In this document: positions 15,220 through 32,551 of the stretch, one piece after another | Layout of the letters: the number at the start of each line of letters is the position of its first letter | Numbering within the stretch: position 1 is the stretch's first letter | Assembly (NCBI RefSeq): GCF_000758625.1 | Contig: NZ_CP009283.1 | Location: 6,202,501 to 6,266,500 of the forward strand | DNA length: 64,000 nucleotides | DNA from: Paenibacillus sp. FSL R7-0273 | GTDB lineage: Bacteria > Bacillota > Bacilli > Paenibacillales > Paenibacillaceae | Reading direction: 5' to 3' | Made by a program: the position numbers and the translations under genes | The notes under the pieces: generated by a model | The model's input: the letters and a program-made list of their open reading frames with translations, nothing else | What the model was told of the DNA's origin: nothing | Database searches by the model: none

Positions 15220-15432
15220 GTTTCGTTACCTCGCATTCTAAAGAGTTTTTGTGCTATTTTTATGAGTTCATAATTAGGCAGACTTCACCCGTCAAATGAA
15301 TTCTAGAAAAAAACAGCCGTCGAATATCCATATCCACAAGAGATGAACCTTAAGGATTTTTTCTTCATGGACTGGACACTCCTTTCTCAGTAGAGGCAAA
15401 GTAAGATGATTTCTGATTATTATAGTTTAATA

Positions 15433-16203: not shown

Positions 16204-16222
16204 CTTCTGTTCCACCCCTTGT

Positions 16223-16870: not shown

Positions 16871-17020
16871 CTTTGACTCCTCCTTGCTCAATAAAATATT
16901 AGTAATAAAAATATATTTTCTATATCAGTAATTTAGCGTATGCTACATTGACTTGTCAACTTAAAAATTGATAATATGAAATTAAGTTTTGTATTACAAA
17001 TATCCCAAGGGTGTGATCAG

Positions 17021-17572: not shown

Positions 17573-17573
17573 G

Positions 17574-17618
17574 ACAAAAGCCCGCATCCGAGCCATAAGG
17601 CCGGGTGCGGGCTTTTGT
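17574..17618 (+). terminator. Intrinsic terminator after XRE-cupin gene
   Basis: ACAAAAGCCCGCA (17574-17586) pairs with TGCGGGCTTTTGT (17606-17618). The built-in T stretch and position directly after the stop codon fit a terminator. Confidence 0.8.
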
Positions 17619-17649
17619 GATGAGAAATATTCTTGCTTAAATCTAAAAT

Positions 17650-17687
17650 AATCCCGATGGGCCAAGGCTATTGGACACATCGGGATT
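17650..17687. terminator. Second hairpin, probable terminator of the TrmH-family gene
   Basis: Perfect 10-bp arms AATCCCGATG (17650-17659) and CATCGGGATT (17678-17687), with an inner CCAA/TTGG pairing. It lies between two convergent genes. Neither side has a long T run, so efficiency is uncertain. Confidence 0.5.
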
Positions 17688-17755
17688 GATTTTGTTGTGA
17701 TAATCCACATTCCGAACGGTGACAAGATGAATTACAGCTCACAAACACCAATGCG

Positions 17756-18553: not shown

Positions 18554-18577
18554 GAAGTCCTTTCCTTTCGCACTTCG

Positions 18578-19237
18578 TTATTGATAAGCCATCTCCAGCT
18601 TATTCAGATTATCCTTGTGCCCGACGATAACCAGAACATCGCCGTCTGCCAGCCGGTCCTCGGCTCTTGGCGTAATGTTCATTTCATCGCCCCGGCGGAT
18701 GGCCATGACGTTGCAGCCGTATCTGGCACGGATGTCCAGCTCCAGCAGGTTTTTACCTAGCATCTGCTTCGGTACCTTCATGTCCAGGATGCTGTAATCC
18801 GGAGACAGCTCAATATAGTCGAGGATGTTCGGCGAGGCCAGATGATGCGCCACCCGTAAGCCCATGTCCCGTTCCGGATATATGATTTTGTCTGCGCCAA
18901 TCTTGCTCAGCACCTTGCCGTGCAGCTCATTTCTGGCTTTGACCAGAATCGCCGGCACACCCAGATCCTTCAGGATCAGCGTGGTCAGGATGCTGGCCTG
19001 TATATCTTCACCGATCGCCACAACGACAACGTCGAAGTTGCGGATCCCCAGCGCACGCAGCGCTTCCTCATCCGTCGAGTCTGCGGATACGGCATGGGTT
19101 ACAATCCCGGATATTTCCTGGGTCCGCTGTTCGTCGGTATCGATTGCCAGCACATCGTATCCCATGCCGCTGAGCGCCTTGGCTACACTTGAGCCGAAGC
19201 GTCCCATCCCGATAATCGCGTATTGTTTTTTGGCCAT
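18578..19237 (-). CDS. ktrA: Potassium uptake regulatory subunit KtrA/KtrC (RCK domain)
   Basis: A 219-aa cytoplasmic gating subunit of the Ktr potassium channel. The RCK-N Rossmann domain (IIGMGRFGSSVAKALSGMG, then VLAIDTDEQRTQEI) binds ATP/ADP, and the RCK-C domain (residues about 135-219, ending VLVIVGHKDNLNKLE) is the known c-di-AMP-binding module in related proteins. The membrane partner KtrB is not in this window, as is common for the KtrCD arrangement, so ktrA versus ktrC cannot be decided. SD is CAGGAGG. No c-di-AMP riboswitch is seen upstream. Confidence 0.88.
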   Translation of the reverse strand: MAKKQYAIIGMGRFGSSVAKALSGMGYDVLAIDTDEQRTQEISGIVTHAVSADSTDEEALRALGIRNFDVVVVAIGEDIQASILTTLILKDLGVPAILVKARNELHGKVLSKIGADKIIYPERDMGLRVAHHLASPNILDYIELSPDYSILDMKVPKQMLGKNLLELDIRARYGCNVMAIRRGDEMNITPRAEDRLADGDVLVIVGHKDNLNKLEMAYQ

Positions 19238-19299
19238 GTCCGTGTACCTCCTGCAGCATTTTTCATCTCACACAGTATAGCATAAGGGCGGCCAAACTT

Positions 19300-19329
19300 G
19301 AATTTTCACTGCCGCCGCAGGGCACATTA
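19300..19329 (+). promoter_or_regulatory. Candidate sigma-G promoter for sspI
   Basis: A -35-like GAATT (19300-19304) and a -10-like CACATTA (19323-19329) are separated by 18 nt. Each box differs from the forespore sigma-G consensus (GHATR, CATnHTA) by one base. The position about 100 nt upstream of the spore protein gene fits forespore expression. Confidence 0.4.
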
Positions 19330-19428
19330 GTACAGGGCGTTTTGGATAAGGCAGAGGTTTGTTCTGATTGTCTCTTCCAGTATTTCTGCCCCTTGAAGCT
19401 TTCCACACAATTAAAAAGGAGGTGCACA

Positions 19429-19674
19429 ATGCCGGTAACCATCGATTTACGCCAGGCGGTTCTTCATAAGGTGCACGGCCAGTCTGAGGAAGACCTGCGC
19501 TCTATGATCGAAGGCTCTGTAGACGGGCCGGAAGCCGCGCTTCCCGGACTTGGTGTCGTATTTGAAATGGTCTGGAAAGACATCGGCAAGGCCAAGCAGG
19601 ATCATGTCATCGGTCTGCTGCACCGGCATCTGGAGGAAATCACCCCCGGATCCGTGACCACCGAGCAGAGCTAG
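19429..19674 (+). CDS. sspI: Small acid-soluble spore protein SspI
   Basis: An 81-aa minor SASP. The family core is plain: IDLRQAVLHKVHGQSEEDL followed by ALPGLGVVFEMVWKD. Homologues are made in the forespore and found in the spore core. The ATG at 19429 follows AAAAGGAGG; an upstream in-frame ATG at 19342 has no site. The C terminus is a little longer than Bacillus SspI. It is monocistronic, flanked by a candidate sigma-G promoter and a bidirectional terminator. Its presence is direct evidence for a spore-forming host. Confidence 0.92.
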   Translation: MPVTIDLRQAVLHKVHGQSEEDLRSMIEGSVDGPEAALPGLGVVFEMVWKDIGKAKQDHVIGLLHRHLEEITPGSVTTEQS

Positions 19675-19680
19675 ACAGCC

Positions 19681-19735
19681 AAAAACCTCCGCTCTCATAA
19701 CGTGCAGTTTCAACGTTAAAGGCGGAGGTTTTTTT
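19681..19735. terminator. Bidirectional terminator between sspI and prfC
   Basis: AAAAACCTCCGC (19681-19692) pairs with GCGGAGGTTTTT (19722-19733), with T runs on both strands. It serves two convergent genes. Confidence 0.85.
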
Positions 19736-19755
19736 AATCACAAGCATTCATGGCA

Positions 19756-21336
19756 TTAAGGAGCAGTCTCAAGGAACTTCGCAGTCGGGTTCTTCTCCAT
19801 CGCCGTCCGCATCGCATACTCGTTCTCGAACAGCACGACATAATTGCCCTTCTTGTCCGTTACAAGTGTAGAGTTAATGCGGAATTTCGCCGGGTCCGGC
19901 TTGTTCTCATCGACGATCCAGCGCGCGAACTGATAGCTCATGCGCTGCAGCATAACATCTACGCCATATTCGCCCTTCATCCGGTATTCGAACACCTCGA
20001 ACTGCAGCTGTCCGACTACGCCGAGCAGAATATCATCGAAGTTGACTGTGCGGAATACCTGAATCATTCCCTCTTCTGTCAGCTGGTCAATTCCTTTTTG
20101 GAACTGCTTCGACTTAAGTGCATTTTTGATGCTCACTTTGGAGAAAATCTCCGGTGAGAATGTCGGCAGCTCATCGAACTCCATCTCGCCCGCCTGGCTC
20201 AGCGTATCGCCGATCCGGAAAATACCCGGGTCAAACAGACCAATAATGTCGCCCGGATACGCCTCTTCGACAATATCACGGTCCTGGGCCAGGAACTGCT
20301 GCGGCTGGGACAGCTTGATATCCTTACCTGCCCGCACATGCTTCACGCTCATGCCCCGCTCGAACTTGCCGGATACAATCCGCAGGAACGCAATGCGGTC
20401 GCGGTGCGCCGGGTTCATGTTAGCCTGGATTTTGAATACGTAGCCTGTGAACTTCTGATTGGTCGGTTCAATGGCTCCAACAGTACTGCGGCGCGGCTCC
20501 GGCTTCGGTGCCAGCTCCAGGAAGTTGTCGAGGAATGTCTGCACCCCGAAATTGTTGATCGCACTGCCGAAGAAGACCGGAGTCAGCTCGCCGCGCAATA
20601 CTTTTTCATAGTCAAAGGCGTCACCCGCCACATCCAGCAGCTCCAGGTCCTGGCACAGCTGGTCATGCAGATATTCTCCGGCCATCTCGCGGATAATCGG
20701 ATCATGGTAGCCCTCTACCTTCTGGACCTTGATCACAGAGTGGTCATCACCCTGGAACAGCTCCACCTGATTCTTCATCCGGTCGTACACGCCGCACAGC
20801 TCGCGGCCGCTGCCGATCGGCCAGTTCATTGGTACGGAGCGGATGCCCAGAACATTTTCCAGCTCCTCCATCAGATCGAACGGGCTCTGGCCTTCACGGT
20901 CCAGCTTGTTGATAAAGGTAAAGATCGGAATGCCGCGTTTCGCGCAGACCTGGAACAGCTTGATCGTCTGTGCTTCCACACCCTTTGCCACGTCGATCAG
21001 CATGACCGCGCTATCCGCAGCCGTCAGGGTCCGGTAGGTATCCTCACTGAAATCCTGGTGACCCGGGGTATCCAGAATGTTGACCCGGTGATCCAGGTAA
21101 TCAAATTGCATAACGGATGACGTTACCGAGATTCCGCGCTGTTTTTCAATTTCCATCCAGTCACTTGTCGCATGCTTGCTTGCTTTACGGGCTTTAACCG
21201 TTCCCGCCAGCCGGATCGCGCCGCCGAACAGCAGCAGCTTCTCCGTTAGTGTTGTTTTACCCGCATCCGGGTGGGAAATGATCGCAAACGTTCTGCGTTT
21301 GTCCACTTCCTGTTGCAGTTTCTGATCCGGTGTCAT
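19756..21336 (-). CDS. prfC: Peptide chain release factor 3 (RF3)
   Basis: A 526-aa translational GTPase that recycles RF1/RF2 from the ribosome after termination. GTPase motifs are G1 SHPDAGKTTLTEK, switch I GISVTSSVMQF, G3 DTPGHQDFSEDTYRTLTAAD and G4 NKLDRE. The length matches the family (about 529). I chose the ATG at 21336 giving MTPDQKLQQEV, preceded by GAAGGGAT, over an upstream in-frame alternative that would add 23 residues not typical of RF3. It stands alone, with a shared terminator downstream. Confidence 0.95.
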   Translation of the reverse strand: MTPDQKLQQEVDKRRTFAIISHPDAGKTTLTEKLLLFGGAIRLAGTVKARKASKHATSDWMEIEKQRGISVTSSVMQFDYLDHRVNILDTPGHQDFSEDTYRTLTAADSAVMLIDVAKGVEAQTIKLFQVCAKRGIPIFTFINKLDREGQSPFDLMEELENVLGIRSVPMNWPIGSGRELCGVYDRMKNQVELFQGDDHSVIKVQKVEGYHDPIIREMAGEYLHDQLCQDLELLDVAGDAFDYEKVLRGELTPVFFGSAINNFGVQTFLDNFLELAPKPEPRRSTVGAIEPTNQKFTGYVFKIQANMNPAHRDRIAFLRIVSGKFERGMSVKHVRAGKDIKLSQPQQFLAQDRDIVEEAYPGDIIGLFDPGIFRIGDTLSQAGEMEFDELPTFSPEIFSKVSIKNALKSKQFQKGIDQLTEEGMIQVFRTVNFDDILLGVVGQLQFEVFEYRMKGEYGVDVMLQRMSYQFARWIVDENKPDPAKFRINSTLVTDKKGNYVVLFENEYAMRTAMEKNPTAKFLETAP

Positions 21337-21524
21337 TGCACATATCCCTTCATATATAAATTCATGCTTTACGCTCCTAATACCCGTTCCCTTTCCAGAA
21401 AGCATCCTTTAAAGTATATCAAAATTCGGCAGACTTTATCTACAAAAAAGCGGCGGAACTCAAATAAGTTGTTAAAATGGACCGATTCATACAAAGTGAG
21501 GCAGCATCAACCCAATATCAATAC

Positions 21525-21552
21525 AAAAAGACACCGATAAGTTATCAGTGTC
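21525..21552 (-). terminator. Intrinsic terminator closing the RiPP-like operon
   Basis: GACACCGATAA (21530-21540) pairs with TTATCAGTGTC (21542-21552) with one mismatch, and the minus strand then reads TTTTTG. It lies 11 nt past the last gene of the eight-gene operon. Confidence 0.75.
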
Positions 21553-21562
21553 AGTTCTTTTT

Positions 21563-22438
21563 TCAGAATAAGGAATAGCAAGCATTTCTGTAACAAGTGA
21601 CGCCCGATTGATGCAACGCGATAAATTCGCTATGCTTATTTATAATATCTGTAATAGGATCGTCCATTTGCCCCAATGAAGATTTATTATGAAAACACGG
21701 ATAAACCGTTCTGTCGGAATCAATAATTAGTGTTTTTGCTGAAAAGTAACATTTTGGAATCGTCCGCGACTTTTTTTTCAAAGTAAATTCTGCAAGTCTG
21801 TAATGGTACTGACGCTCCTCATACGCATAAAACTCCTTAAAAATCGTCAAAGCCTTTTCTATTACCTCCGGGGAGGCCTTGTTCCAGGACAAAATATCCT
21901 CCGAATCCATAAGATTTAAGTTTACACCAAAGCCCCGTTCGGCGGCATAAGCAATCACTTCGACAATATCCTCCACATTTTCAGGTGAAATCGTTACATT
22001 TAAGTCCACATGATCCGAGTAATGCTGCTCATAAATCATATGCAGAACTTCCATTACCTTTGTGTAGCGTCCGCGATATTGGTCGGTATAAGCTTTATTT
22101 AGACTGTCAAGTGTAATGCCGAGATGTACCCGGTGTGCTATAAGCTGCTGAAGCAGTTCTTCTGTAATGAGCGTCCCATTCGTTAATAGCATAATATCCT
22201 GCACCCGGCTGGCTGCAAAACTAATCAGTTCTATAATATACCCCATGCTGAGTGGCTCACCGCCGGTCAGCAGCAACGACTTAACCGGAGTGACCTCCTT
22301 TACCCGCTGCAGGAATGAGGTAATATCCTCAAGCTTCAAATTATCGTTAAGGGAAGGATAAATATCATTATTATAATAGCAATATTGGCATTTAAGATTA
22401 CATTTGGACGTTAGAATGAATCCAAGCCGATCAATCAT
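21563..22438 (-). CDS. Radical SAM protein with SPASM/twitch-like C terminus
   Basis: A 291-aa radical SAM enzyme. The cluster motif CNLKCQYC places the three Fe-S cysteines at residues 13, 17 and 20, followed by the GGEP motif (LLLTGGEPLSMG). The C-terminal 70 residues hold further cysteines (CYFSAKTLIID, PCFHN, TCYRNACYSLF) that could hold an auxiliary cluster, as in twitch or SPASM domains. It is the last gene of the operon and abuts the preceding gene by 1 nt. It is the second radical SAM enzyme of the pathway and may modify the peptide or a peptide-derived product. Which residue is modified cannot be read. Confidence 0.85.
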   Translation of the reverse strand: MIDRLGFILTSKCNLKCQYCYYNNDIYPSLNDNLKLEDITSFLQRVKEVTPVKSLLLTGGEPLSMGYIIELISFAASRVQDIMLLTNGTLITEELLQQLIAHRVHLGITLDSLNKAYTDQYRGRYTKVMEVLHMIYEQHYSDHVDLNVTISPENVEDIVEVIAYAAERGFGVNLNLMDSEDILSWNKASPEVIEKALTIFKEFYAYEERQYHYRLAEFTLKKKSRTIPKCYFSAKTLIIDSDRTVYPCFHNKSSLGQMDDPITDIINKHSEFIALHQSGVTCYRNACYSLF

Positions 22439-23614
22439 TTACTCCCTCCTGTCAATGGGGCCTATCCACTCACTGACAAAACCAGATAGCTCCCTGCCGG
22501 CGTATTGCCCTAAAAGATCGATAAACAATTCAAGTGAAACCACTTGTCCGCAATCATCAAAGGAATCAATGAGTTGCTTCAGAATGGTCATATTTATTAT
22601 CTTTAACTGGAACAGCAGATTAAACGCCAGAACGCCTTTCCCGCAGATCAGCGCCAAAAACGTTTGTTCCTCCATATGGGGTTCAAATTCAGAAATCGTA
22701 GTGTTGGTACCAGCGATATTTGCCTCATATAAATTCTTATAATATTGAAGTTGCCTGTCAAAAAAAGCCTCTCCAAACCTGGTTTTTAGATAACACAGCT
22801 GCAGATACTCCGTTAAGCTTTCCAGAAGCCAATGCCGTCCCCGGCCAACAAAGACGGTCGTCAGCCCGAGCTCCTGGTGAATGATTTCGTGAAAAAGGTA
22901 CTTATAAAGAAATACAAGAGGCTTGGCACACATGCATCCATCTACCAGGATTAGATTTTTACATGAAATTGCATTAACCTGCAAATTCTCAATATCGACG
23001 ATCCGGCACTCCAGCGGGCGTCCAAAAAGAGAATAATAAAAGTCTAAAAATTGCGATAGCTCCCCTGCCAAATCAGCCCTGCCAAACAAGGAAAGCGTCG
23101 GCTCAGAGACAGACACACTTCTTCCGCTAATCTCAATATTGAGCTTTCGCTCATTGGGGGCATTACAATCAGCAATGACCAAACGGCTTAAATCATTGAT
23201 TGTATACTTTCCGCAAACCTCTTCGGCATTGGTAACAAAGGGCACATCGCTCTTTATGGACAAATATGCGTTATAATTCAGCCCAGGGGAAATGGAGGGA
23301 AAATGGATGCTGCCGGGAAGCAGGCGTAAGAAGTTATCCCCCTGTATTTTACTGTAGGAAACGCTGACCTTATTAAACAGCCTTAACGCTTTAATCCGTA
23401 CTTGAAGTCCTGTTCTCTCAAAATAAACTTCCTCAGCATCAACGCATATTAAATGGATAGTGTAGGAACTGTCCAGCATAAACTCCATTGCAGCCAGACT
23501 CTCCTTAAATACAGCCTCGTACGTAATGGCAAGAAGGGCCGCTCTGCAAATAACCGAAATTCGGATTTCCGGCAGCAGCACCTCTCTCTCCGGAATTTGT
23601 AGATTATGAATCAT
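22439..23614 (-). CDS. M1-like gluzincin-motif protein, putative metallopeptidase
   Basis: A 391-aa protein of unknown family. Residues 242-246 read HEIIH, and a Glu follows after exactly 18 residues (LLESLTEY), which is the HExxH-18-E zinc site of M1 gluzincins. The usual M1 GxMEN motif is not seen; the N-terminal 200 residues look beta-rich, as in M1 proteins. I chose the ATG at 23614, which follows AAAGGG and overlaps the previous gene by 11 nt; an ATG 21 nt upstream has no site. It lies in the RiPP-like operon together with two other peptidase-type proteins, so a role in trimming the peptide is inferred. Confidence 0.65.
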   Translation of the reverse strand: MIHNLQIPEREVLLPEIRISVICRAALLAITYEAVFKESLAAMEFMLDSSYTIHLICVDAEEVYFERTGLQVRIKALRLFNKVSVSYSKIQGDNFLRLLPGSIHFPSISPGLNYNAYLSIKSDVPFVTNAEEVCGKYTINDLSRLVIADCNAPNERKLNIEISGRSVSVSEPTLSLFGRADLAGELSQFLDFYYSLFGRPLECRIVDIENLQVNAISCKNLILVDGCMCAKPLVFLYKYLFHEIIHQELGLTTVFVGRGRHWLLESLTEYLQLCYLKTRFGEAFFDRQLQYYKNLYEANIAGTNTTISEFEPHMEEQTFLALICGKGVLAFNLLFQLKIINMTILKQLIDSFDDCGQVVSLELFIDLLGQYAGRELSGFVSEWIGPIDRRE

Positions 23615-24521
23615 AAAAATCAACCCTTTTCCCATCGATGCTTAAGGTGAACGATTCCAGCACAATATCAAAGTGATAGGGTCTTTCAAATATCCCCTGC
23701 ATATTCCGGTTATGTCCGAATCCGAGATGACAGGTTCCCCAAAGCTTCTCGTAACTGGGCATAAAGCGCAGGTTGGCTAAGTCGGCATTAGTGCCGATGC
23801 CGAACTCTGCCAAGGGAACCGGAATCCCCTTATATTCACCGGAACTGAAAAAGGCCATCCCGTCCTGAATGGATACGCTCCGCAAACCTCCGGCAACTGC
23901 ATAAATAATTTCTCCCTGCGCAGTATAGGGCTGGGGAGCAAAAAACACCTCGCCTCCCGGAAGCTGAAAAAGATGTTCATGCTCGCTAAATTGACAGTTT
24001 TCCATCAGGATTTCATTTTCCCGGTCTCTTGCAAATTTCAAATCGGTTCCCAGGCTGCTGTGGAGCCGGTAGCTGGCCCCCTGTAACAAAATACTTTGAA
24101 CATGGCGGTTTCTCCTGCCTAGCGCAGCATAATCAAAACTGATGGCTTTTTGATATAGCCGGATTACAGCGTCTGCATAATGCTGCGGTACGTACAGCGT
24201 TGGGTCATCCATTAGAATCAGAGGCAGCTTCAGCGCTTCGCAACGGTTAATAAAATGATGTACAGCAGGTGCTGTCGATGAATTTTCAGAGAAGGGAAAT
24301 AGCATAAACAACACTTTCTGCCCTATATATCCTTCCAGAAATTCCGGCTGAATACATTCGGATACAGCGGCTGTCCGGATAGTCCGGATTTCTTCTCCAG
24401 GCTGCATCCGAAGCTCATCCACTACAGAACGTACATACACCGATTCTGGCGGATCAAATAGAATAACAGTCTTCCTGTCACTGAAAAAATCCGGTTCTTG
24501 TCCAAATACCTCTGGCTTCAT
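23604..24521 (-). CDS. M29-like aminopeptidase
   Basis: A 305-aa protein resembling the C-terminal half of M29 (thermophilic aminopeptidase T/AmpS) metallopeptidases. The signatures and likely metal ligands are Glu191 in GGEVFFAP, Glu239 in LAEFGIGTN, His265 in GTCHLGFGHN, and the HFD pair near residues 283-285. Family members of this fold cleave N-terminal residues using two metal ions. The N-terminal third is divergent and the protein is about 100 residues shorter than AmpS. It overlaps both neighbours by a few nucleotides in the RiPP-like operon. A different chemistry on the same fold (as in dihydroxypyridine dioxygenase relatives) is possible. Confidence 0.7.
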   Translation of the reverse strand: MKPEVFGQEPDFFSDRKTVILFDPPESVYVRSVVDELRMQPGEEIRTIRTAAVSECIQPEFLEGYIGQKVLFMLFPFSENSSTAPAVHHFINRCEALKLPLILMDDPTLYVPQHYADAVIRLYQKAISFDYAALGRRNRHVQSILLQGASYRLHSSLGTDLKFARDRENEILMENCQFSEHEHLFQLPGGEVFFAPQPYTAQGEIIYAVAGGLRSVSIQDGMAFFSSGEYKGIPVPLAEFGIGTNADLANLRFMPSYEKLWGTCHLGFGHNRNMQGIFERPYHFDIVLESFTLSIDGKRVDFYDS

Positions 24522-25747
24522 AAAGCCGGCTGCTCTGCCTCAGCCTGATTCACCCCGATCCGTACATGTTTAGCGTTCAAATAAATTAACACGGTAATGG
24601 AAATCAGCAAGCTGGCCGCACCCAAATACCAAATGAAAGAGTATCCCAGCCGTTCGGTAAGCAACCCAAGGACCAAGGTGATAGCAAAACCAGCAAGGGA
24701 TTTCAACGCGGATAGACCTGAGGAGAAGGTGGCACGTTTACTTCTAGGAATAAAATCCTGAACCCAAGCGCCAAAACAGGAGGATTCCATAGCAAGCCCA
24801 AACTCGAATAGAATCAGGCCCCCGACAAATACAACCGGGTTAGGAAACAATCCTACAAGCAGTAGTCCCAGAGCAGAAATTAAGGTGCCACCAGTTATAA
24901 TTTTAACGGGAGAGACTTTCCGTTTAGCCAGATAAGATACAAAAAAGCTGGATACGCTCATGACCGCCATGAAAACGACTAGAATAATTCCCAGATAGCT
25001 TACTGACATATGCAGTTCATTAACACCGTATACCTGCCAGGTGAGCAGGAATGCGAGCAGCCCCGCATGGCTGAATATACTTTTCAGTAATATAAACCGC
25101 ATTAGCTTATTCTTGGCAAAGTCTACTGAGGTATTATATACCTCTTTAAAAATATTCTCTTCCGTTCGTTCCCCATAGTTATCAGTGAACCGGAACCAGG
25201 CGTAGATACCAAGACCGATGGCCACAATCCCTGCTATTGCAACAGGTAGATACAGGTGAACATTGCTGCTTACCGTTGCCAGAAAGGCACCGACAATAGC
25301 AAATGCGGAGATAAAGCCGTTTAAGCGGGGCAGCACCACATTCTTATAATCCAGCATACCGAGATCATCCAGCTTATCAATATACCACGCCTGAGGTGAT
25401 CCGGAGATTAAGGCTACCCCCAATGACATAATGACCGCAGAAACGATGAACAGCATGAGATTAGAGGCAAAAGCAAACAGGCATAAGCCTATGCCCCAAG
25501 TAAAGAAACCGATAGCGGTTAATTTCTTCCGACCGAATAAATCGGATAGATTCCCGCTGGGATAATCAAAAATCGCCAATGACAACGAGGACACTGCAAA
25601 CACAATACTGATTTGCAGCGGATCAATCCCTCTCATACTCATCAGCACGATATACACTGCTCCGTACAGCTTATCCGCCAGATTGTATCCGGAGAGCATG
25701 ACGCCTACAAAAATGCTGTACTGCTTATGAGCTGGTAATGTCTTCAT
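24518..25747 (-). CDS. MFS transporter, probable product exporter
   Basis: A 409-aa polytopic membrane protein of the major facilitator superfamily with about 12 hydrophobic segments. The diagnostic loop 2-3 motif reads YPSGNLSDLFGRKKLTAIG, close to the GxxxDRxGRR consensus. The start at 25747 (MKTLPAHKQ) follows GGGGAG and overlaps the previous gene by 23 nt; the longer frame upstream has no site. Its position inside the RiPP-like operon argues for export of the mature product and self-protection. The transport direction is inferred. Confidence 0.88.
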   Translation of the reverse strand: MKTLPAHKQYSIFVGVMLSGYNLADKLYGAVYIVLMSMRGIDPLQISIVFAVSSLSLAIFDYPSGNLSDLFGRKKLTAIGFFTWGIGLCLFAFASNLMLFIVSAVIMSLGVALISGSPQAWYIDKLDDLGMLDYKNVVLPRLNGFISAFAIVGAFLATVSSNVHLYLPVAIAGIVAIGLGIYAWFRFTDNYGERTEENIFKEVYNTSVDFAKNKLMRFILLKSIFSHAGLLAFLLTWQVYGVNELHMSVSYLGIILVVFMAVMSVSSFFVSYLAKRKVSPVKIITGGTLISALGLLLVGLFPNPVVFVGGLILFEFGLAMESSCFGAWVQDFIPRSKRATFSSGLSALKSLAGFAITLVLGLLTERLGYSFIWYLGAASLLISITVLIYLNAKHVRIGVNQAEAEQPAL

Positions 25748-27200
25748 ATAATTTCTCCCCGTTTCTGAACAAATCCAAAAAATCATCGTCAGTAATATGC
25801 TCATGCTTCTTTAATCCCGCACGAACAGCAGCAAAGCCCAAAGCATAGGAAATACTTTCAATAGGAGCACTGTAGGCCTGCAGGCATATACTCCTTAGCC
25901 GGGAAGCTGACTCACGGCCTTCACAATAGCCGGCGAGCCGGTCGGCAGCCTGATTGAAGCTGTATCCGCAGGAGTGGATAAGTACGGTTGAGATGGCAAG
26001 CAGCAGTGATTTTCTTAAGCCCTGTCTGAACTCCGCGATTAAATCCGCATCCTGAAGAATAAAGTGGCTCAAGCTGTATTCACAATACTTTGCCCAGCCC
26101 TCTTCTATTATCAAATTGTCCATTACCGTGCTTTCAATCATATTCTCCCGTGATTGGACGAATTTGGAGTAATGATGTCCCGGAAAAATCTCATGCACAA
26201 GCCCCAGGGTCATACTAAAATCGTTCAATTTCGCCGGGTCATAGATCAAGGCGCCCTTTACGGCTTTTTCTTTCAGCAAATAGGACCGTAAATACGCCAA
26301 CCGTCCGGGCTGTTTGTATTTCAGATCCTTCATATCGGCAGTGGCCACGTGCTGCAGAAACTCTTCTGTATCAGCCTCCATTAATGCTTTGCCTGCATGG
26401 AACACATGCTCTAGCTGCGCTTCAAGCGACAACACCTTACTGCGCTCCCCGGCAGCATTCCGGCTAATGTCCGTTGTACAATCATACTCATCCATTTCAG
26501 TCTCCATATCCTTTAAAAACCGCTGGAAATCCATCCTGATTCCCGATTCCAGTGCGATATAGGTTCTAAAGCGTTCCTCTCCTATGCCCCGCATAAAGGT
26601 GATGCTCTCCTCTTGCCGGCTGATCAGATATGCCCGGAATTTTTCTGCCTCCTGCTTGAGCATTTCCACCGTTCCGTCCGGGAGGCTAAGCCCACCCGCC
26701 ATTAGCAGAATCTGCTTCAGCTCCTCCTCCAGCTGTCTAAGCCCGAGGATGCAATCCAGCTTAGTGACGGATGCTTCAGATAAATTCCGGACCGCCGCGG
26801 CGTAGAATGGCTGGAGTGAGCGGATGTATGCAGCTAAAAGATCACTTCGGATATCCGCTGAAAAGACAGCTTCATAGGTTCTCCCTAACAACGATATCGT
26901 CCGCAGCGAATGTTGAATATAGAATACCGGAGTCCGCCATGACTGCAATTCTTCAAGCTCGAATATCCGCAGTTTGAGTGTCCTCGTCAAAGACTGTATC
27001 GGCTTCTGGCTACCTTCCTCCAGCAATTCCGCCAGCCCCAGAAGCTTCTTGTATTCAGCCATCACCCTGTGGAGATTGTCCTCTGAAAAGATGAACAGCT
27101 CCTGTCTGTCGATTCCCCATTTAATAGCCATACTTGGGTAAAGGCAGCTGGATAATTGAATGTACTGGTCTACAAGATATTCACGCGTTGGCTTCATCAT
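25725..27200 (-). CDS. DUF885 family protein, putative zinc metallopeptidase
   Basis: A 491-aa mainly helical protein with the DUF885 signatures: a zinc-binding HExxPGHH motif (VHEIFPGHHYSKF) near residue 340, followed about 30 residues later by IIEEGWAKYCE, which supplies a further Glu, and a C-terminal SYALGFAAVR. Members are thought to be peptidases and often carry a signal peptide; none is seen here, so this one is cytoplasmic. The start at 27200 follows GGAG; two other ATGs lie 18 nt and 15 nt upstream. It overlaps the stop of the synthetase-like gene by about 20 nt. Confidence 0.75.
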   Translation of the reverse strand: MMKPTREYLVDQYIQLSSCLYPSMAIKWGIDRQELFIFSEDNLHRVMAEYKKLLGLAELLEEGSQKPIQSLTRTLKLRIFELEELQSWRTPVFYIQHSLRTISLLGRTYEAVFSADIRSDLLAAYIRSLQPFYAAAVRNLSEASVTKLDCILGLRQLEEELKQILLMAGGLSLPDGTVEMLKQEAEKFRAYLISRQEESITFMRGIGEERFRTYIALESGIRMDFQRFLKDMETEMDEYDCTTDISRNAAGERSKVLSLEAQLEHVFHAGKALMEADTEEFLQHVATADMKDLKYKQPGRLAYLRSYLLKEKAVKGALIYDPAKLNDFSMTLGLVHEIFPGHHYSKFVQSRENMIESTVMDNLIIEEGWAKYCEYSLSHFILQDADLIAEFRQGLRKSLLLAISTVLIHSCGYSFNQAADRLAGYCEGRESASRLRSICLQAYSAPIESISYALGFAAVRAGLKKHEHITDDDFLDLFRNGEKLYEDITSS

Positions 27201-28752
27201 ATGCAACCGCTCCATCATTCCGGAATAAATAGCTTTGTCCGTTCTGATCCTTGGGAAAAATCATTACGTCCTGCAGCTCCTGCGTGTCCATAAGCTTCCA
27301 CAACAGCCTCTCCCAGCCGATGCCTATGGTAAAAACCGGAGGTGAACCGCTTTTCAAAGCATCCAGGTAGTAGGTATAATGCTCCTCGCTTACCTGTAAT
27401 AGCTCCAGGGATTGTAAAAACTCCTTCACCCTGTATTCTTTTTCACTGCCGCTGGCAATTTCTACACCATTCAGAATGAGATCAATTCCTTTACTTTCCT
27501 GCCCAAGACGCTTCGTAAAAATATTCTGCCCTATTCCCTCCAGCGGCTCCTGTCCGGGTGTACCTGCTTCAATATACGGATAATTCTCAATCCAGCAAAA
27601 GGAATATTTCTCAGTTGGCCGCCCCCTGTTTAATGAGCGGAGAATGGACGAGAAGAAGGCCGAAACTAGCGGCTCTGATCCCTCCATAAGCAGAATTTCA
27701 CCTGTATCAACTTGAGTAATCCCTTCGAAAAAAGTTTTGAATTGAGCTAGGTCAAGGGTTCTGCCATTTCTATGGGACAGCCGGTTTTCGGCAATCCTCA
27801 ATATTGAATATCCTGAGACCGCCAGCTTCTCGGCTCTGCCCGCAATAAATTGAAGGACTGTTTCGGGCAGGGAATAAGGAATTATTAGTGTTTTATATGT
27901 ATTGCTGCTATCCAAGCTGAATTCCGTATATTTTGGCTGAAGAAATTCCCGGTATCTGAAATCAGGCTTATCAGAGCCATAGAGGCGCATTGATTCCTTA
28001 TAATCCAGCACCGGAAACGGAGTGGAGATTTCAACATCAAAGCATTGCAGGCAAAGGTGCCTGAGCATTTCTTCAATAAGTGCCTTTCCCTCTTCATTTG
28101 TACAAAAGTCGCAATTTATTGCCAGTTGGGTAAACTCTACCAAAGCATCCGTTTTGACCTCGGCACTTTCTTCCGACAGCCGGAAACAGGGGTGGAATTG
28201 AAATATCCGTTCCAGGCCGCCTATATTGTTCAGCAGATTTAGAATATTAGGGGATTGCAGCAGGGTATGTTCGAATTGGCGGGAAAGCACATTGTAAACC
28301 TTGAATTCATTAAAGCCGTATTCTTGCACACTTGTCCAGAGCAGCGGATTTCTTGTCTCAATGAAGTAACGGCCACAGAGAAATTGTCTGATCTGCTGCT
28401 CCATCTCATTTATTTTTTTAGCCAGCCGAATGTTCTTATGTTCAAAAAATTTAAGATAGGTATACTCATTATTGACGTAAGAACCTTTAACAGCCCGTGT
28501 GGACGTATTAAGTACCTCTAGCCTGGTTGCGATTAAAGATAAGCGAGGCTCTTCTGCTTCCTCTTCCAAACTAACCTCAACTGCAACTACATCCCTGATC
28601 TCCAGCTGGTCAGAATTGCAGCAGATCATCATCTCACCCGTCATATCCCACAGCATAAATCCCTGCGGGTTGATTTCCTTCACCCAGCCTGCCAATGAGC
28701 ATTCACCAGAGTGCGCTTGCAGTTCTGCTATAAGGACTCTCTTATGCAGCAT
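27181..28752 (-). CDS. Aspartyl-tRNA synthetase paralogue with altered amino-acid pocket
   Basis: A 523-aa class II aminoacyl-tRNA synthetase-like protein. Residues 1-85 form an OB-fold, as in the AspRS anticodon domain. The catalytic core keeps motif 2 (CFR at 189-191, then VEFTQL), YKESMRLYGSDKP (251-263), FCWIENYP (385-392), LNGVEIASGS (427-436) and motif 3 GIGWERLL (477-484). Amino-acid-recognition positions differ from AspRS: QSPQxxK reads QSPNILN, HHPFT reads QNIFT, and GGGSxR reads ASGSEK. It is shorter than bacterial AspRS (about 590), with a reduced GAD insertion. It is therefore not the housekeeping enzyme. In the operon it sits between the radical SAM maturase and a peptidase. It may activate an amino acid for peptide extension, or be an immunity copy of AspRS. 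Confidence 0.85.
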   Translation of the reverse strand: MLHKRVLIAELQAHSGECSLAGWVKEINPQGFMLWDMTGEMMICCNSDQLEIRDVVAVEVSLEEEAEEPRLSLIATRLEVLNTSTRAVKGSYVNNEYTYLKFFEHKNIRLAKKINEMEQQIRQFLCGRYFIETRNPLLWTSVQEYGFNEFKVYNVLSRQFEHTLLQSPNILNLLNNIGGLERIFQFHPCFRLSEESAEVKTDALVEFTQLAINCDFCTNEEGKALIEEMLRHLCLQCFDVEISTPFPVLDYKESMRLYGSDKPDFRYREFLQPKYTEFSLDSSNTYKTLIIPYSLPETVLQFIAGRAEKLAVSGYSILRIAENRLSHRNGRTLDLAQFKTFFEGITQVDTGEILLMEGSEPLVSAFFSSILRSLNRGRPTEKYSFCWIENYPYIEAGTPGQEPLEGIGQNIFTKRLGQESKGIDLILNGVEIASGSEKEYRVKEFLQSLELLQVSEEHYTYYLDALKSGSPPVFTIGIGWERLLWKLMDTQELQDVMIFPKDQNGQSYLFRNDGAVAYDEANA

Positions 28753-28769
28753 ACAGCTTGTTCCCCCTT

Positions 28770-30077
28770 TTATTTAGTCACTGCCCAAGGGATAACGCTT
28801 TTAAAAAATTTGCACTTTTCTGGATTCAGCTTGCCTTCTCTTACGATCGCTTCGAACGTGCACGGCCCGCCGCAAATGTTATAGCCGACACAATGCAGAC
28901 AGGCCTTACTGCTATGATCATCGAAATGCCAGTCAATAAAGGCCTCATCCAGAGAAAAATCGCTGAAATTGGAGGTGCATCTTTCGTCGCATTCTACAAC
29001 GCACTTGGAGACCTGGCCATCGCTTGTGACATAAACCCCCCAGGAGTTCTCGGCCTGCCCGTAGGTAAGATTCATACATGAATTGGTTTGCGGAAATTGA
29101 TTATTCACGAGAAATACAATGTTGTTTCCGGGGTGGTTAAACGGGACATTTACCTTATCGCAATACATCCAGGCTTTAATAATAGCCTCTCCTAACGCTG
29201 CACCGTCGATATCCCAGCCATGCTCATTCGGCTGCGGCGTATTAACGCTAATCTCGGTGAAACCTATATCCTCTACTAAATGGGTAATAATCTCTGAGAA
29301 AATATCCAGGTTTTCTTTAGTTGGAGTAATGATTCCCGAGAGTCTTCCCCCTGCATTTCTGAAATGATGTACGCCTCTGACAATAGCATCATAGCTGCCG
29401 GTCCCGTTATGATAGATTCTGTTCTTATCATTAATCTCTTTCCATCCGTCAATACTAAAAACAAGCATTATTTTCTTCTCATAAAAGTAACGGGCGTTCT
29501 CCTCGGAAACGAGTGTCCCGTTCGTGACGATTTCTTCGGTAAAACCTGTGATTTGGCCGTTCCTTTGGGCTTCCTCCAGCATTTCATGTCCGCGTTTAAT
29601 CAGATCCATACGAATTAGCGGCTCCCCTCCAAAATACTGCAGAATGGGAGCGGCGTTCTGATTCTGTCCAATAAACCATTTCATGGTATCCTCGAAGGCC
29701 TCAATGCTCATTGAGCCTTTATTCTGGTAAATATCATTCACAAAACAATAGGTACAATTCAGATTGCACAGTTCTGTCAAGGAAATACGCATGTAACCAA
29801 TTCTGTTCTTTCTTATCCGCTTGTTAACGTCTCTGCGGGTGCGCCGCTGGAGCTTTGCCTCTGCAAATTCATCATGCTCACACGGGACAAGAAATTTCTG
29901 CTCCGCCAGATCCAGGCTGTAACTGTCCTCCGCTAATGGACGTGGAGTTTTATAGGCCTGGTATGCCTCATATCCCTCATCTGGGAGCTCAAACAACCCC
30001 ATGGTATGGGCATTAAAAAACACATAATTTTCTTCTTTATCGAAGACATTCGCAAACTTCGACTGTCTGTACAGCAT
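28770..30077 (-). CDS. Radical SAM/SPASM peptide maturase
   Basis: A 435-aa radical SAM enzyme. The Fe-S motif CNLNCTYC holds Cys104, 108 and 111, with GGEP at about residue 150. The C-terminal SPASM domain shows a textbook CLHCVGYNICGGPC (Cx2Cx5Cx3C) plus SCMNLTYG, KCVVECDERC and EKCKFF, enough for two auxiliary 4Fe-4S clusters. The first 90 residues may contain a peptide-recognition (RRE/PqqD-like) domain. Such enzymes form thioether, C-C or other bonds on ribosomal peptides. It follows the 57-aa peptide gene by 63 nt and starts after GGGAGG, so it is the primary maturase of this pathway. Confidence 0.92.
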   Translation of the reverse strand: MLYRQSKFANVFDKEENYVFFNAHTMGLFELPDEGYEAYQAYKTPRPLAEDSYSLDLAEQKFLVPCEHDEFAEAKLQRRTRRDVNKRIRKNRIGYMRISLTELCNLNCTYCFVNDIYQNKGSMSIEAFEDTMKWFIGQNQNAAPILQYFGGEPLIRMDLIKRGHEMLEEAQRNGQITGFTEEIVTNGTLVSEENARYFYEKKIMLVFSIDGWKEINDKNRIYHNGTGSYDAIVRGVHHFRNAGGRLSGIITPTKENLDIFSEIITHLVEDIGFTEISVNTPQPNEHGWDIDGAALGEAIIKAWMYCDKVNVPFNHPGNNIVFLVNNQFPQTNSCMNLTYGQAENSWGVYVTSDGQVSKCVVECDERCTSNFSDFSLDEAFIDWHFDDHSSKACLHCVGYNICGGPCTFEAIVREGKLNPEKCKFFKSVIPWAVTK

Positions 30078-30100
30078 GGTTAATCCTCCCGTTCCGGATG

Positions 30101-30124
30101 GGAGAGGGGAAACCCCCTCTCTCC
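30101..30124 (-). promoter_or_regulatory. GC-rich hairpin between precursor peptide and maturase genes
   Basis: GAGAGGGG (30102-30109) pairs with CCCCTCTC (30114-30121) around a 4-nt loop. No T run follows on the minus strand, so it is more likely a partial attenuator or mRNA-stabilising hairpin than a full terminator. Such elements commonly keep precursor peptide mRNA in excess over the maturase. Confidence 0.55.
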
Positions 30125-30140
30125 TGTGTAAGTACCGGTA

Positions 30141-30314
30141 TTATTTGGCTGAAAGTAGTGCAGTTTCTGACTGTTTTTCTTCCAGTTCGATAGCCGCCAG
30201 GAGCTCTGCCTCGAATTCTTCAAACTCAACATCTAGAGTAGTAGCTGATCTCGATCTTTTGCACACATCTGCATAGTCAGGTGCCTGCAAAGTAATTTTC
30301 TTTTCTTTTAGCAT
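30141..30314 (-). CDS. 57-aa precursor-like peptide of the radical SAM pathway
   Basis: A small gene with a strong AAGGAGG ribosome site 8 nt before the ATG. The peptide begins MLKEKKITLQAPDYADV, then CKRSRSATTLDVE, an acidic helix-like stretch FEEFEAELLAAIELEE, and ends KQSETALLSAK. It has one Cys (18) and one Tyr (14), a basic centre and a strongly acidic second half. The start ...KKITLQAPDY resembles leader segments of small radical SAM substrates, but I cannot name a family. It is the first gene after the promoter and is followed by a hairpin and the maturase. Its role as substrate is inferred from position and size. Core residues are unknown. Confidence 0.75.
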   Translation of the reverse strand: MLKEKKITLQAPDYADVCKRSRSATTLDVEFEEFEAELLAAIELEEKQSETALLSAK

Positions 30315-30345
30315 AATTTCCGCCTCCTTCCCTTCCTTAAATATA

Positions 30346-30368
30346 ATAATATGTAAAAAACATATTAT
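30346..30368. promoter_or_regulatory. Operator-like dyad in the leader of the RiPP-like operon
   Basis: ATAATATG (30346-30353) and CATATTAT (30361-30368) form a perfect 8-bp inverted repeat with a 7-nt A-rich spacer. It lies immediately downstream of the -10 box, where a bound repressor would block transcription. No regulator gene is in the operon. Confidence 0.5.
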
Positions 30369-30376
30369 ATTATGGG

Positions 30377-30404
30377 ATTATATAGGAATTTTCCCATTTG
30401 TAAA
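30377..30404 (-). promoter_or_regulatory. Promoter of the RiPP-like operon
   Basis: On the minus strand, -35 TTTACA (30399-30404) and -10 TATAAT (30377-30382, a perfect consensus) are spaced 16 nt. It is 63 nt upstream of the precursor peptide start. Confidence 0.7.
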
Positions 30405-30483
30405 TAAAACAACAGATGATTCATTTTATATACATATTCAGGAATAAAAACAATCTAAATCCATTTAATCGTGATATTGATTA

Positions 30484-30645
30484 TTGACATTTTTTAGGGT
30501 GATATCCTTTAATAAAGTTGTGCGTCTATTCCGGCTTTTGTAGGAATCATGAGCTTTTAAGCCGGGGTGTGAGGACTCCACCCCGAAGTTGACGCCCGTG
30601 CCGGGCGTACCACAAAAATCCCCCTGCGCTTCTGCGAGGGGGATT
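30484..30645 (+). ncRNA. Candidate structured RNA with two mutually exclusive folds
   Basis: A promoter-like TTGACA (30484-30489) and TTTAAT (30508-30513), 18 nt apart, precede a highly structured stretch. CCGGCTT (30531-30537) pairs with AAGCCGG (30559-30565), and GGGGTG (30564-30569) with CACCCC (30579-30584) as partly competing neighbours. GCGTC (30522-30526) can close both with GACGC (30591-30595). Alternatively ACGCCCG (30592-30598) pairs with CGGGCGT (30602-30608), which excludes the closing stem. A final hairpin at 30617-30645 is the zwf terminator on the other strand. I recognise no known RNA family. No plus-strand gene follows, so a free small RNA is more likely than a riboswitch; the minus strand would place it in the leader of the RiPP-like operon. 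Confidence 0.4.
30617..30645 (-). terminator. Intrinsic terminator of zwf
   Basis: AATCCCCCT (30617-30625) pairs with AGGGGGATT (30637-30645), followed on the minus strand by TTTTTGTGG. It lies 25 nt past the zwf stop codon. Confidence 0.8.
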
Positions 30646-30669
30646 CACTGATTTCAGCTTATACGGGTA

Positions 30670-32220
30670 TTAGCTGTTCACACGCCATACCACATTATCT
30701 TCATCCTGTCCGTTCACCGGCCACCAGTGGAAGCCGTCCTGATCCAGCAGCTGATCTGCTTCTACCGGGCCCCATGAGCCTGCAGGGTAGGAGGCCAGAT
30801 CATTGCTCTCTTCCTTCCACGCTGTGGCGATCCGGTCTACAAATGACCAGGCCGAGGACACTTCATCCCAGCGGGTAAAATAGGTCGAGTCGCCGCGTGC
30901 CGCATCATGCAGCAGACGCTCATAGGCCTCCGGCGAGTTAATGCCAACCATGCAGCTCTGGCAGAAGTCCATTGCGAGCGGCTGGATTTCTGATTCCGAG
31001 CCCGGCTTCTTAGCATTGATCTTCACATAGATGCCTTCCATCGGGTTAACGCGGATAACGAGCAGGTTCGGCTCAAGCTTATGCTTTTGGCCCAGGTATA
31101 CGTTCGTTGGCATACCCTTGAACTCAACCACCACTTCCGTCGTCTTCACCGGCAGGCGTTTGCCTGTACGAATGTAGAATGGAACCCCCGCCCAGCGGAA
31201 ATTGTCTACAAAGATACGTGCTGCAAAATACGTCTCGGTATTGGATTCAGGATCTACCTTATCCTCCTGGCGGTAAGCCGGCAGGCTCTTGCCTTTGTAG
31301 AGGCCCTGGGTATATTGACCGCGCACCACGTTCTCGCGCACTTCCTCTGAGGAAGAATACGGACGCAGCGAACGGAGCACCTTCACCTTCTCATCACGGA
31401 TATCCTCAGCCAGCAGACGGCTTGGCGGCTCCATTGCAATCATCGTCAGCAGCTGCAATATATGGTTCTGCCCCATATCGCGCAATGCTCCGGCATGATC
31501 ATAGTACCCGCCGCGCTCCTCTACCCCGACTGTTTCGCCAAGGGTAATCTGAATGTTGGCAATATGCTTGTTGTTCCACAGCGGCTCAAAGAACGCATTG
31601 GCAAAACGGATAACCTCAATGTTCTGCACCATTTCCTTGCCGAGATAGTGGTCAATCCGGTAGATCTCTTCTTCTTTGAATACCTGGCGGATCTGCTCAT
31701 TCAGCTGCTCGGCAGACTCCAGGTTGTAGCCGAATGGTTTCTCGATAACGAGACGGTTCCAGCCTGCGCCCTGCAGCATGCCTCCTGCCTTGAGGTTGAA
31801 CGAGACGCTGCCGAACAGCTCAGGGGCCAGAGCCAGATAGAACATCCGGTTGCCCGGGATCTGGAACTTCTCTTCAAGCAGCTCCGTCTGAGCATTCAGC
31901 TCACGGAAGCCGTCAACATTGTTGATGTCCAGTGATTTATATTCAAAATGTTGAACAAATTCGTTCCATTCAGCAGCATCGGCTATCTGATAACGGCAGA
32001 ATTCACGGATGGATTCCTTCACATCCTCGTGAAATTCCTCCTGGGTGCGGGGACGCCGAGCCACGCCAATTACCGCAAAATCATGTGTCAGCTTGCCTTC
32101 GCGGTACAAGCTGTATATCGCCGGGAAAAGCTTGCGGCGGGCCAGATCTCCGGTTGCCCCAAAAATAAAGAATACAGCACCGGGTGTGTGCAATGCATCA
32201 AGGGTTTGATTTTCAGCCAT
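30670..32220 (-). CDS. zwf: Glucose-6-phosphate 1-dehydrogenase
   Basis: A 516-aa enzyme that oxidises glucose 6-phosphate to 6-phosphogluconolactone with NADP+, the entry step of the oxidative pentose phosphate pathway. The nucleotide loop FGATGDLARRKLFPA is near residues 19-33, the substrate motif RIDHYLGKEMVQN contains the catalytic DHYLGK, and EKPFGYN is present. Length is typical. The ATG follows GATGAGGAG at short spacing. It is monocistronic with its own terminator and has a Fur-like box overlapping the likely promoter. Confidence 0.97.
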   Translation of the reverse strand: MAENQTLDALHTPGAVFFIFGATGDLARRKLFPAIYSLYREGKLTHDFAVIGVARRPRTQEEFHEDVKESIREFCRYQIADAAEWNEFVQHFEYKSLDINNVDGFRELNAQTELLEEKFQIPGNRMFYLALAPELFGSVSFNLKAGGMLQGAGWNRLVIEKPFGYNLESAEQLNEQIRQVFKEEEIYRIDHYLGKEMVQNIEVIRFANAFFEPLWNNKHIANIQITLGETVGVEERGGYYDHAGALRDMGQNHILQLLTMIAMEPPSRLLAEDIRDEKVKVLRSLRPYSSSEEVRENVVRGQYTQGLYKGKSLPAYRQEDKVDPESNTETYFAARIFVDNFRWAGVPFYIRTGKRLPVKTTEVVVEFKGMPTNVYLGQKHKLEPNLLVIRVNPMEGIYVKINAKKPGSESEIQPLAMDFCQSCMVGINSPEAYERLLHDAARGDSTYFTRWDEVSSAWSFVDRIATAWKEESNDLASYPAGSWGPVEADQLLDQDGFHWWPVNGQDEDNVVWRVNS

Positions 32221-32253
32221 GGCTCCTCATCTCTCTGTATGTAATATAGTTAT

Positions 32254-32268
32254 TGACAATCATTCTCA
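32254..32268. promoter_or_regulatory. Fur-like box in the zwf promoter
   Basis: The sequence TGACAAT C ATTCTCA is an exact fit to the 7-1-7 inverted repeat TGAnAAT-n-ATTnTCA of the Bacillus Fur box. On the minus strand a TTGAGA/TATTAC pair spaced 17 nt overlaps it, 34 nt upstream of the zwf start. PerR and Zur boxes are related, so the regulator is inferred. Confidence 0.55.
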
Positions 32269-32455
32269 ACAAACCGTATAACGGCGTGATGTCATTTTAT
32301 CATATTCGCCGTAAGGATGCTATCACATTCCTGACAGTTTTTCTCGGGTTTTCGCAATTTTCCATTACTCTTTTTTATTCATTTTCATACTGATGCTTAT
32401 AGTCTGCAGCCGGATTTTGGGCTTATGCCCACCTTACCTATTATACCTTCAGCAA

Positions 32456-32493
32456 AAAGCTCCGCAAAGCCGGAGCCCGGTCTGCGGAGCTTT
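32456..32493. terminator. Hairpin terminator after the YwmB-like gene
   Basis: AAAGCTCCGCA (32456-32466) pairs with TGCGGAGCTTT (32483-32493). On the minus strand it is followed by TT only, but the A/T ends of the stem supply a T tract. The 330-nt gap between zwf and the YwmB-like gene otherwise holds only the zwf promoter. Confidence 0.7.
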
Positions 32494-32551
32494 CTGTTAG
32501 GATATGCAGAATTACAGCGGATTATGACGATAATTGTGCAGGATGCATCCG

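What the first reader, a model, noticed from the sequence alone, without database searches (positions are those of the whole stretch)
21525..30404. Undescribed eight-gene RiPP-like operon combining two radical SAM enzymes, an AspRS paralogue and three metallopeptidase-type proteins
Seen: one promoter, a 57-aa peptide gene, then seven genes in the same direction with overlaps or gaps of at most 63 nt, and one terminator. Known: SPASM radical SAM enzymes mature ribosomal peptides; MFS proteins export products; DUF885, M29 and M1-type proteins bind zinc and usually cut peptides. Inference: the peptide is modified, possibly extended or conjugated by an activated amino acid, then degraded to a small product that is exported. 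Scaffold-peptide pathways (PQQ, mycofactocin, peptide aminoacyl-tRNA ligase products) share this logic, but I know of no described pathway with this gene set. A second model is a Trojan-horse peptide whose processed form blocks AspRS, with the paralogue as immunity copy, as the microcin C theme would suggest.
Basis: partly seen in the sequence, partly recalled or inferred. Interest (0 to 1): 0.95.

Follow-up and report, generated by a model that had tools for sequence, protein, structure and literature searches.

The report
Radical-SAM peptide pathway with AspRS-like ligase
Nine bacterial genomes from two phyla carry the same seven-gene set, which is predicted to turn a short gene-encoded peptide into an exported small molecule, likely with the help of a copy of a protein-synthesis enzyme that keeps its ATP-site residues but has lost those that hold aspartate in its relatives.

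Summary
In detail: eight minus-strand genes (30314 to 21563), gaps at most 63 nt, inserted between zwf and prfC, which are neighbours in the 11 relatives whose locus was fetched. The set is not a local accident. In 9 of 9 loci read in full (window, Thermoanaerobacter, Sporolactobacillus, Nonomuraea, three Glycomyces, a Streptomyces plasmid, an actinomycete MAG) seven genes stand on one strand: precursor, two radical SAM, AspRS-like, MFS, M29-like, M1-type; DUF885 in 4 of 9. A tenth radical SAM locus, cut by its contig end, shows no precursor. The precursor is not variable: all nine share [DN]-x-C-x-R-S and an FExxL helix. In 21 AspRS-like proteins both ATP-site arginines are kept, while recalled aspartate-pocket residues are lost (kept in 0 to 1 of 21). 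So the paralogue is most likely a biosynthetic adenylating ligase, not an immunity copy. In T. thermocopriae a genuine second aspS, under purifying selection beside a decayed hisS, follows the operon; this single case hints that AspRS is the target. No product is known; chemistry and target are inferred. Nine paper searches (listings only) found no such pathway.

The parts
30377..30404 (-). promoter-like site TTTACA-16-TATAAT
   Evidence: consensus scan, 11 of 12; no experimental evidence
30141..30314 (-). precursor peptide, 57 aa, with A-D-V-C-K-R-S (general form [DN]-x-C-x-R-S) and a C-terminal acidic FEAELLAAIE stretch (general form FExxL)
   Evidence: homologous short ORF in 9 of 9 loci
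28770..30077 (-). rSAM1: radical SAM peptide maturase of SPASM type, 435 aa; CxxxCxxC at C104, C108, C111 and seven C-terminal cysteines invariant in the 21 aligned homologues
   Evidence: the Pfam SPASM model itself does not hit
27181..28752 (-). AspRS-like protein (AspRSL), 523 aa: bacterial AspRS fold, ATP-site arginines kept, Asp and anticodon recognition residues lost
25725..27218 (-). DUF885-like metallopeptidase candidate, 497 aa (HExxPGH...E), accessory: 4 of 9 loci
24518..25804 (-). MFS transporter, 428 aa, predicted exporter
23604..24521 (-). M29-like aminopeptidase candidate, 305 aa; E, E, H, H, D of the M29 metal site as I recall it invariant in 9 of 9
22439..23635 (-). M1-type gluzincin, 398 aa, HExxHQxxG...E invariant in 13 of 13
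21563..22438 (-). rSAM2: short radical SAM enzyme, 291 aa, CxxxCxxC plus four further cysteines invariant in 9 of 9
21530..21552 (-). terminator-like hairpin with T run

Best explanation
This is an eight-gene cluster, seven genes of which recur together in nine genomes, that is predicted to make a small ribosomal-peptide-derived metabolite: the two radical SAM enzymes likely modify the conserved [DN]-x-C-x-R-S core of the 57-aa precursor, the AspRS-like protein would adenylate a carboxylate of that core or of a partner and ligate it, the M29-like and M1-type aminopeptidases would trim the product free, and the MFS protein would export it. Shown by sequence: gene set, order, conserved core, radical SAM cluster cysteines, zinc motifs, ATP-site arginines with lost Asp-pocket residues in the AspRS-like protein, and insertion between zwf and prfC. 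Inferred: one transcript, which residues are modified (my guess is a Cys to Asp/Asn cross-link by rSAM1, after its distant likeness to PapB), the order of steps, what the AspRS-like protein activates, and the export. AspRS as the target of the product is a further, weaker inference.
Against: No product, substrate or activity is known. rSAM1 and rSAM2 are below the cut-off of each NCBIfam model shown (best 25 of 75 and of 87). A tenth rSAM1 locus (L007, Pseudobutyrivibrio MAG, 38%, 78% of the query) has no precursor in the 1 kb upstream that I read and none by profile; its contig ends just downstream, so the rest cannot be checked. AspRSL is frameshifted in the T. thermocopriae draft. In the five actinobacterial loci other than Nonomuraea AspRSL is very divergent (18 to 22% identity) and the M1-type protein is short, and in four of them it matched only weakly before iteration, so roles may differ there. 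AspRSL could still charge a tRNA with another amino acid.
Confidence: 0.55

Rival explanations
1. The cluster makes an inhibitor of aspartyl-tRNA synthetase, and a full-length second AspRS such as the one in T. thermocopriae is a self-resistance copy; the AspRS-like operon protein is biosynthetic.
For: T. thermocopriae is the only one of the 10 genomes of its genus group with two aspS matches (E 1e-60 or better) and the only one with rSAM1. The second aspS lies about 0.9 kb after rSAM2 on the same strand. Between them lies a hisS remnant with many stops (68 to 70% nt identity over about 640 positions), while the long frame of aspS2 is 390 of 403 aa identical to the aspS of another genome of the group with dN/dS 0.037, so aspS was kept while hisS decayed. 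The core motif begins with Asp or Asn.
Against: One case only: the window genome, Sporolactobacillus, Nonomuraea and two Glycomyces have one ordinary AspRS each; Streptomyces, the MAG and the third Glycomyces were not tested. The aspS2 reading frame is broken once in the draft, as is the housekeeping aspS there. It may be a passenger of the hisS-aspS segment.
Confidence: 0.3
2. The AspRS-like protein is itself the immunity copy.
For: It is an AspRS paralogue whose model spans the whole bacterial AspRS fold.
Against: Residues recalled to bind aspartate (K202, H449, R489 in own-AspRS numbering) and the anticodon (R29, Q47) are kept in only 0, 0, 1, 2 and 0 of 21 members, and it travels with the biosynthetic genes in 9 of 9 loci.
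Confidence: 0.07
3. A peptide-pheromone or signalling operon: the processed peptide is an intercellular signal, and the peptidases tune it.
For: Small peptide-derived product predicted; peptidases and transporter present.
Against: None of the eight window proteins hits a regulator or receptor domain in Pfam; neighbours in the other loci were not surveyed for one.
Confidence: 0.12
4. The product is a redox cofactor or metallophore made on a scaffold peptide, as PQQ and mycofactocin are.
For: One conserved core in nine loci, two radical SAM enzymes, peptidases.
Against: A transporter gene is present in 9 of 9, the distribution is sparse (1 of 296, 1 of 100, 1 of 394 genomes, own or centre genome counted) and none of the eight window proteins hits a dehydrogenase family. 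A P450 and an oxidoreductase are annotated after the Streptomyces locus; they were not looked for elsewhere.
Confidence: 0.15
5. An anti-phage system with a viperin-like radical SAM enzyme.
For: rSAM2 and, more weakly, rSAM1 match PADLOC pVip models (5.6e-22 and 1.5e-13).
Against: The NCBIfam viperin model is far below cut-off for rSAM2 (68.7 against 180 bits); the other six proteins have no PADLOC hit; a precursor peptide is conserved.
Confidence: 0.02

Closest known systems
PapB-type ranthipeptide maturation (radical SAM/SPASM)
   Same: rSAM1 has PapB as its best NCBIfam match and a small acidic precursor gene before it
   Different: 140.7 bits against a cut-off of 340; one cysteine in 7 of 9 precursors, in a fixed short motif; the other genes are not part of ranthipeptide clusters as I recall them
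Pearlin / PEARL pathways (3-thiaglutamate, ammosamide)
   Same: small amino-acid-like products built on a scaffold peptide and cut free (start of abstracts seen in the listing: PMC9303977, PMC12715798, PMC11117183)
   Different: no LanB-type gene among the eight proteins (Pfam scan); the core lies in the N-terminal third of the precursor, not added to its C-terminus
Microcin C
   Same: peptide origin, Asp/Asn theme, AspRS as possible target (mechanism of microcin C recalled)
   Different: no ThiF-like MccB among the eight proteins; AspRS paralogue has lost the Asp pocket
PQQ and mycofactocin pathways
   Same: radical SAM on one conserved peptide motif, followed by peptidases (recalled)
   Different: AspRS-like protein, MFS transporter and second radical SAM enzyme here
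Synthetase-derived ligases AsnA and EpmA
   Different: AspRSL of the window aligns with nearly the whole length of bacterial AspRS (506 aligned) and sits in a radical SAM peptide cluster

Membership tests
RiPP biosynthetic gene cluster | short precursor gene conserved beside modifying enzymes | tested here: met
   9 of 9 loci read in full; not seen in L007
RiPP biosynthetic gene cluster | post-translational modification of the precursor shown | not testable with these tools
   needs expression and mass spectrometry
PapB ranthipeptide maturase | score above NCBIfam NF047865 cut-off | tested here: not met
   140.7 against 340 bits
Aspartyl-tRNA synthetase (functional) | score above aspS_bact TIGR00459 cut-off | tested here: not met
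   167.6 against 373.85 bits
Aspartyl-tRNA synthetase (functional) | aspartate-binding residues K202, H449, R489 (own-AspRS numbering; roles recalled) | tested here: not met
   0, 0 and 1 of 21 against 77, 76 and 77 of 77 canonical-length sequences
Class II adenylating enzyme of the AspRS fold | motif 2 and motif 3 arginines and AspRS fold | tested here: met
M1 peptidase | M1 fold with HExxH and downstream Glu | tested here: met
M1 peptidase | Pfam M1 score above cut-off | tested here: not met
   no Pfam hit at E 0.1
M29 aminopeptidase | Pfam PF02073 above cut-off | tested here: not met
   13.7 bits window, 26.5 bits L003, none for Streptomyces; cut-off 27
PEARL pathway | LanB-type peptide aminoacyl-tRNA ligase in the cluster | tested here: not met
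   no such Pfam hit in the eight window proteins
Microcin C pathway | ThiF-like MccB adenylyltransferase | tested here: not met
   no such Pfam hit in the eight window proteins
Prokaryotic viperin | NCBIfam viperin cut-off | tested here: not met
   rSAM2 68.7 against 180 bits

The most novel reading that the evidence does not exclude
A new class of ribosomal-peptide antimetabolite: an AspRS paralogue that has lost aspartate recognition builds, on the Asp or Asn of a radical-SAM-cross-linked [DN]-x-C-x-R-S core, a mimic that poisons AspRS itself, and some carriers protect themselves with a second true AspRS kept beside the operon.
Probability: 0.2. Interest if true: 0.92.

Novelty: new variant of a known kind. 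Interest (0 to 1): 0.74.

Why it matters
It would be a new type of peptide-derived small-molecule pathway, defined by a repurposed aminoacyl-tRNA synthetase acting together with two radical SAM enzymes. The nine-locus set makes it directly testable: the core motif says where to look for the modification, the altered AspRSL pocket says which activity to assay, and the second aspS in one carrier names a candidate target. If AspRS is the target, it would add a natural inhibitor of an essential enzyme.

Tried and rejected
Rejected: AspRSL as immunity AspRS (lost recognition residues). Rejected: known RNA control of the operon; cmscan of 19000-32500 gave only two matches far below gathering score; in T. 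thermocopriae the T-box lies before the native hisS, and none was found before the second aspS. Rejected: defence system (only viperin-model matches of the two radical SAM proteins). No relatives in IMG/VR with the patterns used. A host-variable precursor: not found.

Wider samples found few carriers, own or centre genome counted: 1 of 296 of the order with the M1-type protein; with rSAM1 profiles 1 of 100 of the genus (23), 1 of 10 and 1 of 24 around Thermoanaerobacter (36, 53), 1 of 394 actinobacteria (52), 3 of 22 of the Glycomyces genus (54). Paper searches gave listings with titles and starts of abstracts only (two listed nothing); no paper was read. The library holds open-licence papers only, so a description elsewhere is not excluded.

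Caveats: the canonical set was 73 of the hits P0120 to P0226, chosen by length 560 to 640, plus four from loci; F36 is aligned to gaps and says little. The tree program warned of two long branches, of long branches meeting and of unlike letter make-up; no LysRS or AsnRS was put in it. Profiles were iterated with their own hits, so its E-values are inflated; one search gives the earlier values (themselves from a profile built on the first hits for all but the radical SAM genes). Start codons of relatives were picked by a script. L003 AspRSL was left out and of the tree because its frame is broken; P0109, which looks like its intact form, is in both. GC is also low (0.48 to 0.49) at 15000-18000, outside the operon, so the GC contrast is weak evidence.
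Full report
Observation. The promoter-like site and terminator-like hairpin are there, but such sites are nearly as common in shuffled sequence, so the single transcript is likely, not shown.

The cluster is an insertion. zwf and prfC lie within 1.5 kb of each other in all 11 relatives whose prfC locus was fetched, L114 to L124; one of the 12 relatives searched gave no locus. In the window the cluster separates them. GC is 0.43 to 0.48 across it against 0.54 to 0.56 at 18000-21000 and 0.53 to 0.55 after 33000, but 0.48 to 0.49 also occurs at 15000-18000, so GC adds little. Among 100 genomes of the genus only the window's own has rSAM1 at E 1e-60. Horizontal gain is likely.

Conservation. Profiles were run on the 80 loci of the rSAM1 scan (L003 to L082), a Streptomyces plasmid locus (L084) and the window, and later on a third Glycomyces locus. 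Nine loci could be read in full. In 9 of 9 the precursor, rSAM1, AspRSL, MFS, M29-like, M1-type and rSAM2 genes lie on one strand within about 6.6 to 12 kb. DUF885 is in 4 of 9 (window, Thermoanaerobacter, Sporolactobacillus, Nonomuraea). The window order is repeated in Thermoanaerobacter and in Sporolactobacillus, there with a 2.1 kb stretch between rSAM1 and AspRSL. Nonomuraea has M1-type before M29-like and two extra genes after the precursor. Glycomyces and Streptomyces have precursor, rSAM1, M29-like, M1-type, rSAM2, MFS, AspRSL; the actinomycete MAG has AspRSL after rSAM1 and MFS last. The M1-type match is weak in four actinobacterial loci in the earlier profile (E 0.041 to 2.3e-6); the iterated profile includes them and cannot serve as proof, but the place in the cluster and HExxHQ...E agree. 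A tenth rSAM1 locus, L007 (38%), has no precursor by profile or in the 1 kb upstream and is cut by its contig end. Protein hits for rSAM1 and AspRSL share five further contig lengths (32362, 598226, 12616, 12509, 11001), which suggests five more loci; this rests on lengths only.

Precursor. The nine precursors (50 to 67 aa) align at two places: [GA]-[DN]-x-C-x-R-S with the cysteine at residue 15 to 18, and 13 to 20 residues after it FExxL, the start of an acidic, helix-like stretch. The profile found no such ORF in L010 to L082. Seven of nine have a single cysteine. A conserved core argues for one product type.

A second AspRS. T. thermocopriae holds two ordinary aspS genes: one after hisS as usual (L095) and one about 0.9 kb after rSAM2 on the same strand (L094). 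It is the only one of 10 genomes in the genus group with two and the only one with rSAM1. The gap between rSAM2 and aspS2 holds a hisS remnant, 68 to 70% identical at DNA level over about 640 positions and with many stops, while the long frame of aspS2 is 390 of 403 aa identical to the single aspS of another genome of the group, with dN 0.018, dS 0.49, ratio 0.037; two single-copy aspS genes compared the same way give 0.047. So a hisS-aspS segment arrived or was copied, hisS decayed, and aspS was kept. aspS2 differs at three positions that are the same in the 11 full genes compared, one of them two residues before the R489 equivalent; this could be resistance or chance. Its frame is broken once in this draft, but so is the housekeeping aspS, so draft errors are likely. 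The other five genomes tested have one ordinary AspRS. The link to AspRS as target is therefore suggestive only.

How it most likely works. Shown: genes, conservation, motifs, folds by prediction. Inferred: rSAM1 and rSAM2 modify the core, possibly joining Cys to the Asp or Asn two residues before it; AspRSL adenylates an acid of the core or of a partner and forms an amide or ester; aminopeptidases of the M29 and M1 kinds remove the N-terminal part; the MFS protein exports the product.

Novelty. Nine paper searches found no such gene set (listings seen only). The parts are known kinds; the combination, with an AspRS paralogue that has lost recognition residues as a core member of a radical SAM peptide pathway, is to my knowledge undescribed.

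Noticed in passing
L094 1683-3460 and L003 9780-10690: Second full-length-type aspS directly after the operon in Thermoanaerobacter thermocopriae, with a decayed hisS remnant between them; ORFs that look like transposases (by eye) follow.
   Followed up: yes
L005 7884-9993: Nonomuraea locus carries a HemN-type radical SAM gene and a methyltransferase between precursor and rSAM1.
   Followed up: partly
L084 8485-22614: Streptomyces plasmid locus has a methyltransferase upstream, an oxidoreductase and a cytochrome P450 downstream, and IS6 transposases on both sides.
   Followed up: partly
L004 2818-4917: About 2.1 kb with an ORF that looks like a transposase (by eye) splits rSAM1 from AspRSL in Sporolactobacillus.
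   Followed up: no
L007 10001-11106: Pseudobutyrivibrio MAG rSAM1 relative (38%) without a recognisable precursor upstream, at a contig end.
   Followed up: partly
L014 5765-10990: Paenibacillus faecis contig matches the rSAM2 query at four places within about 5 kb.
   Followed up: no
window 30670-32220 and 19756-21405: zwf and prfC flank the operon and are neighbours in all 11 relatives fetched, so this is an insertion site.
   Followed up: yes
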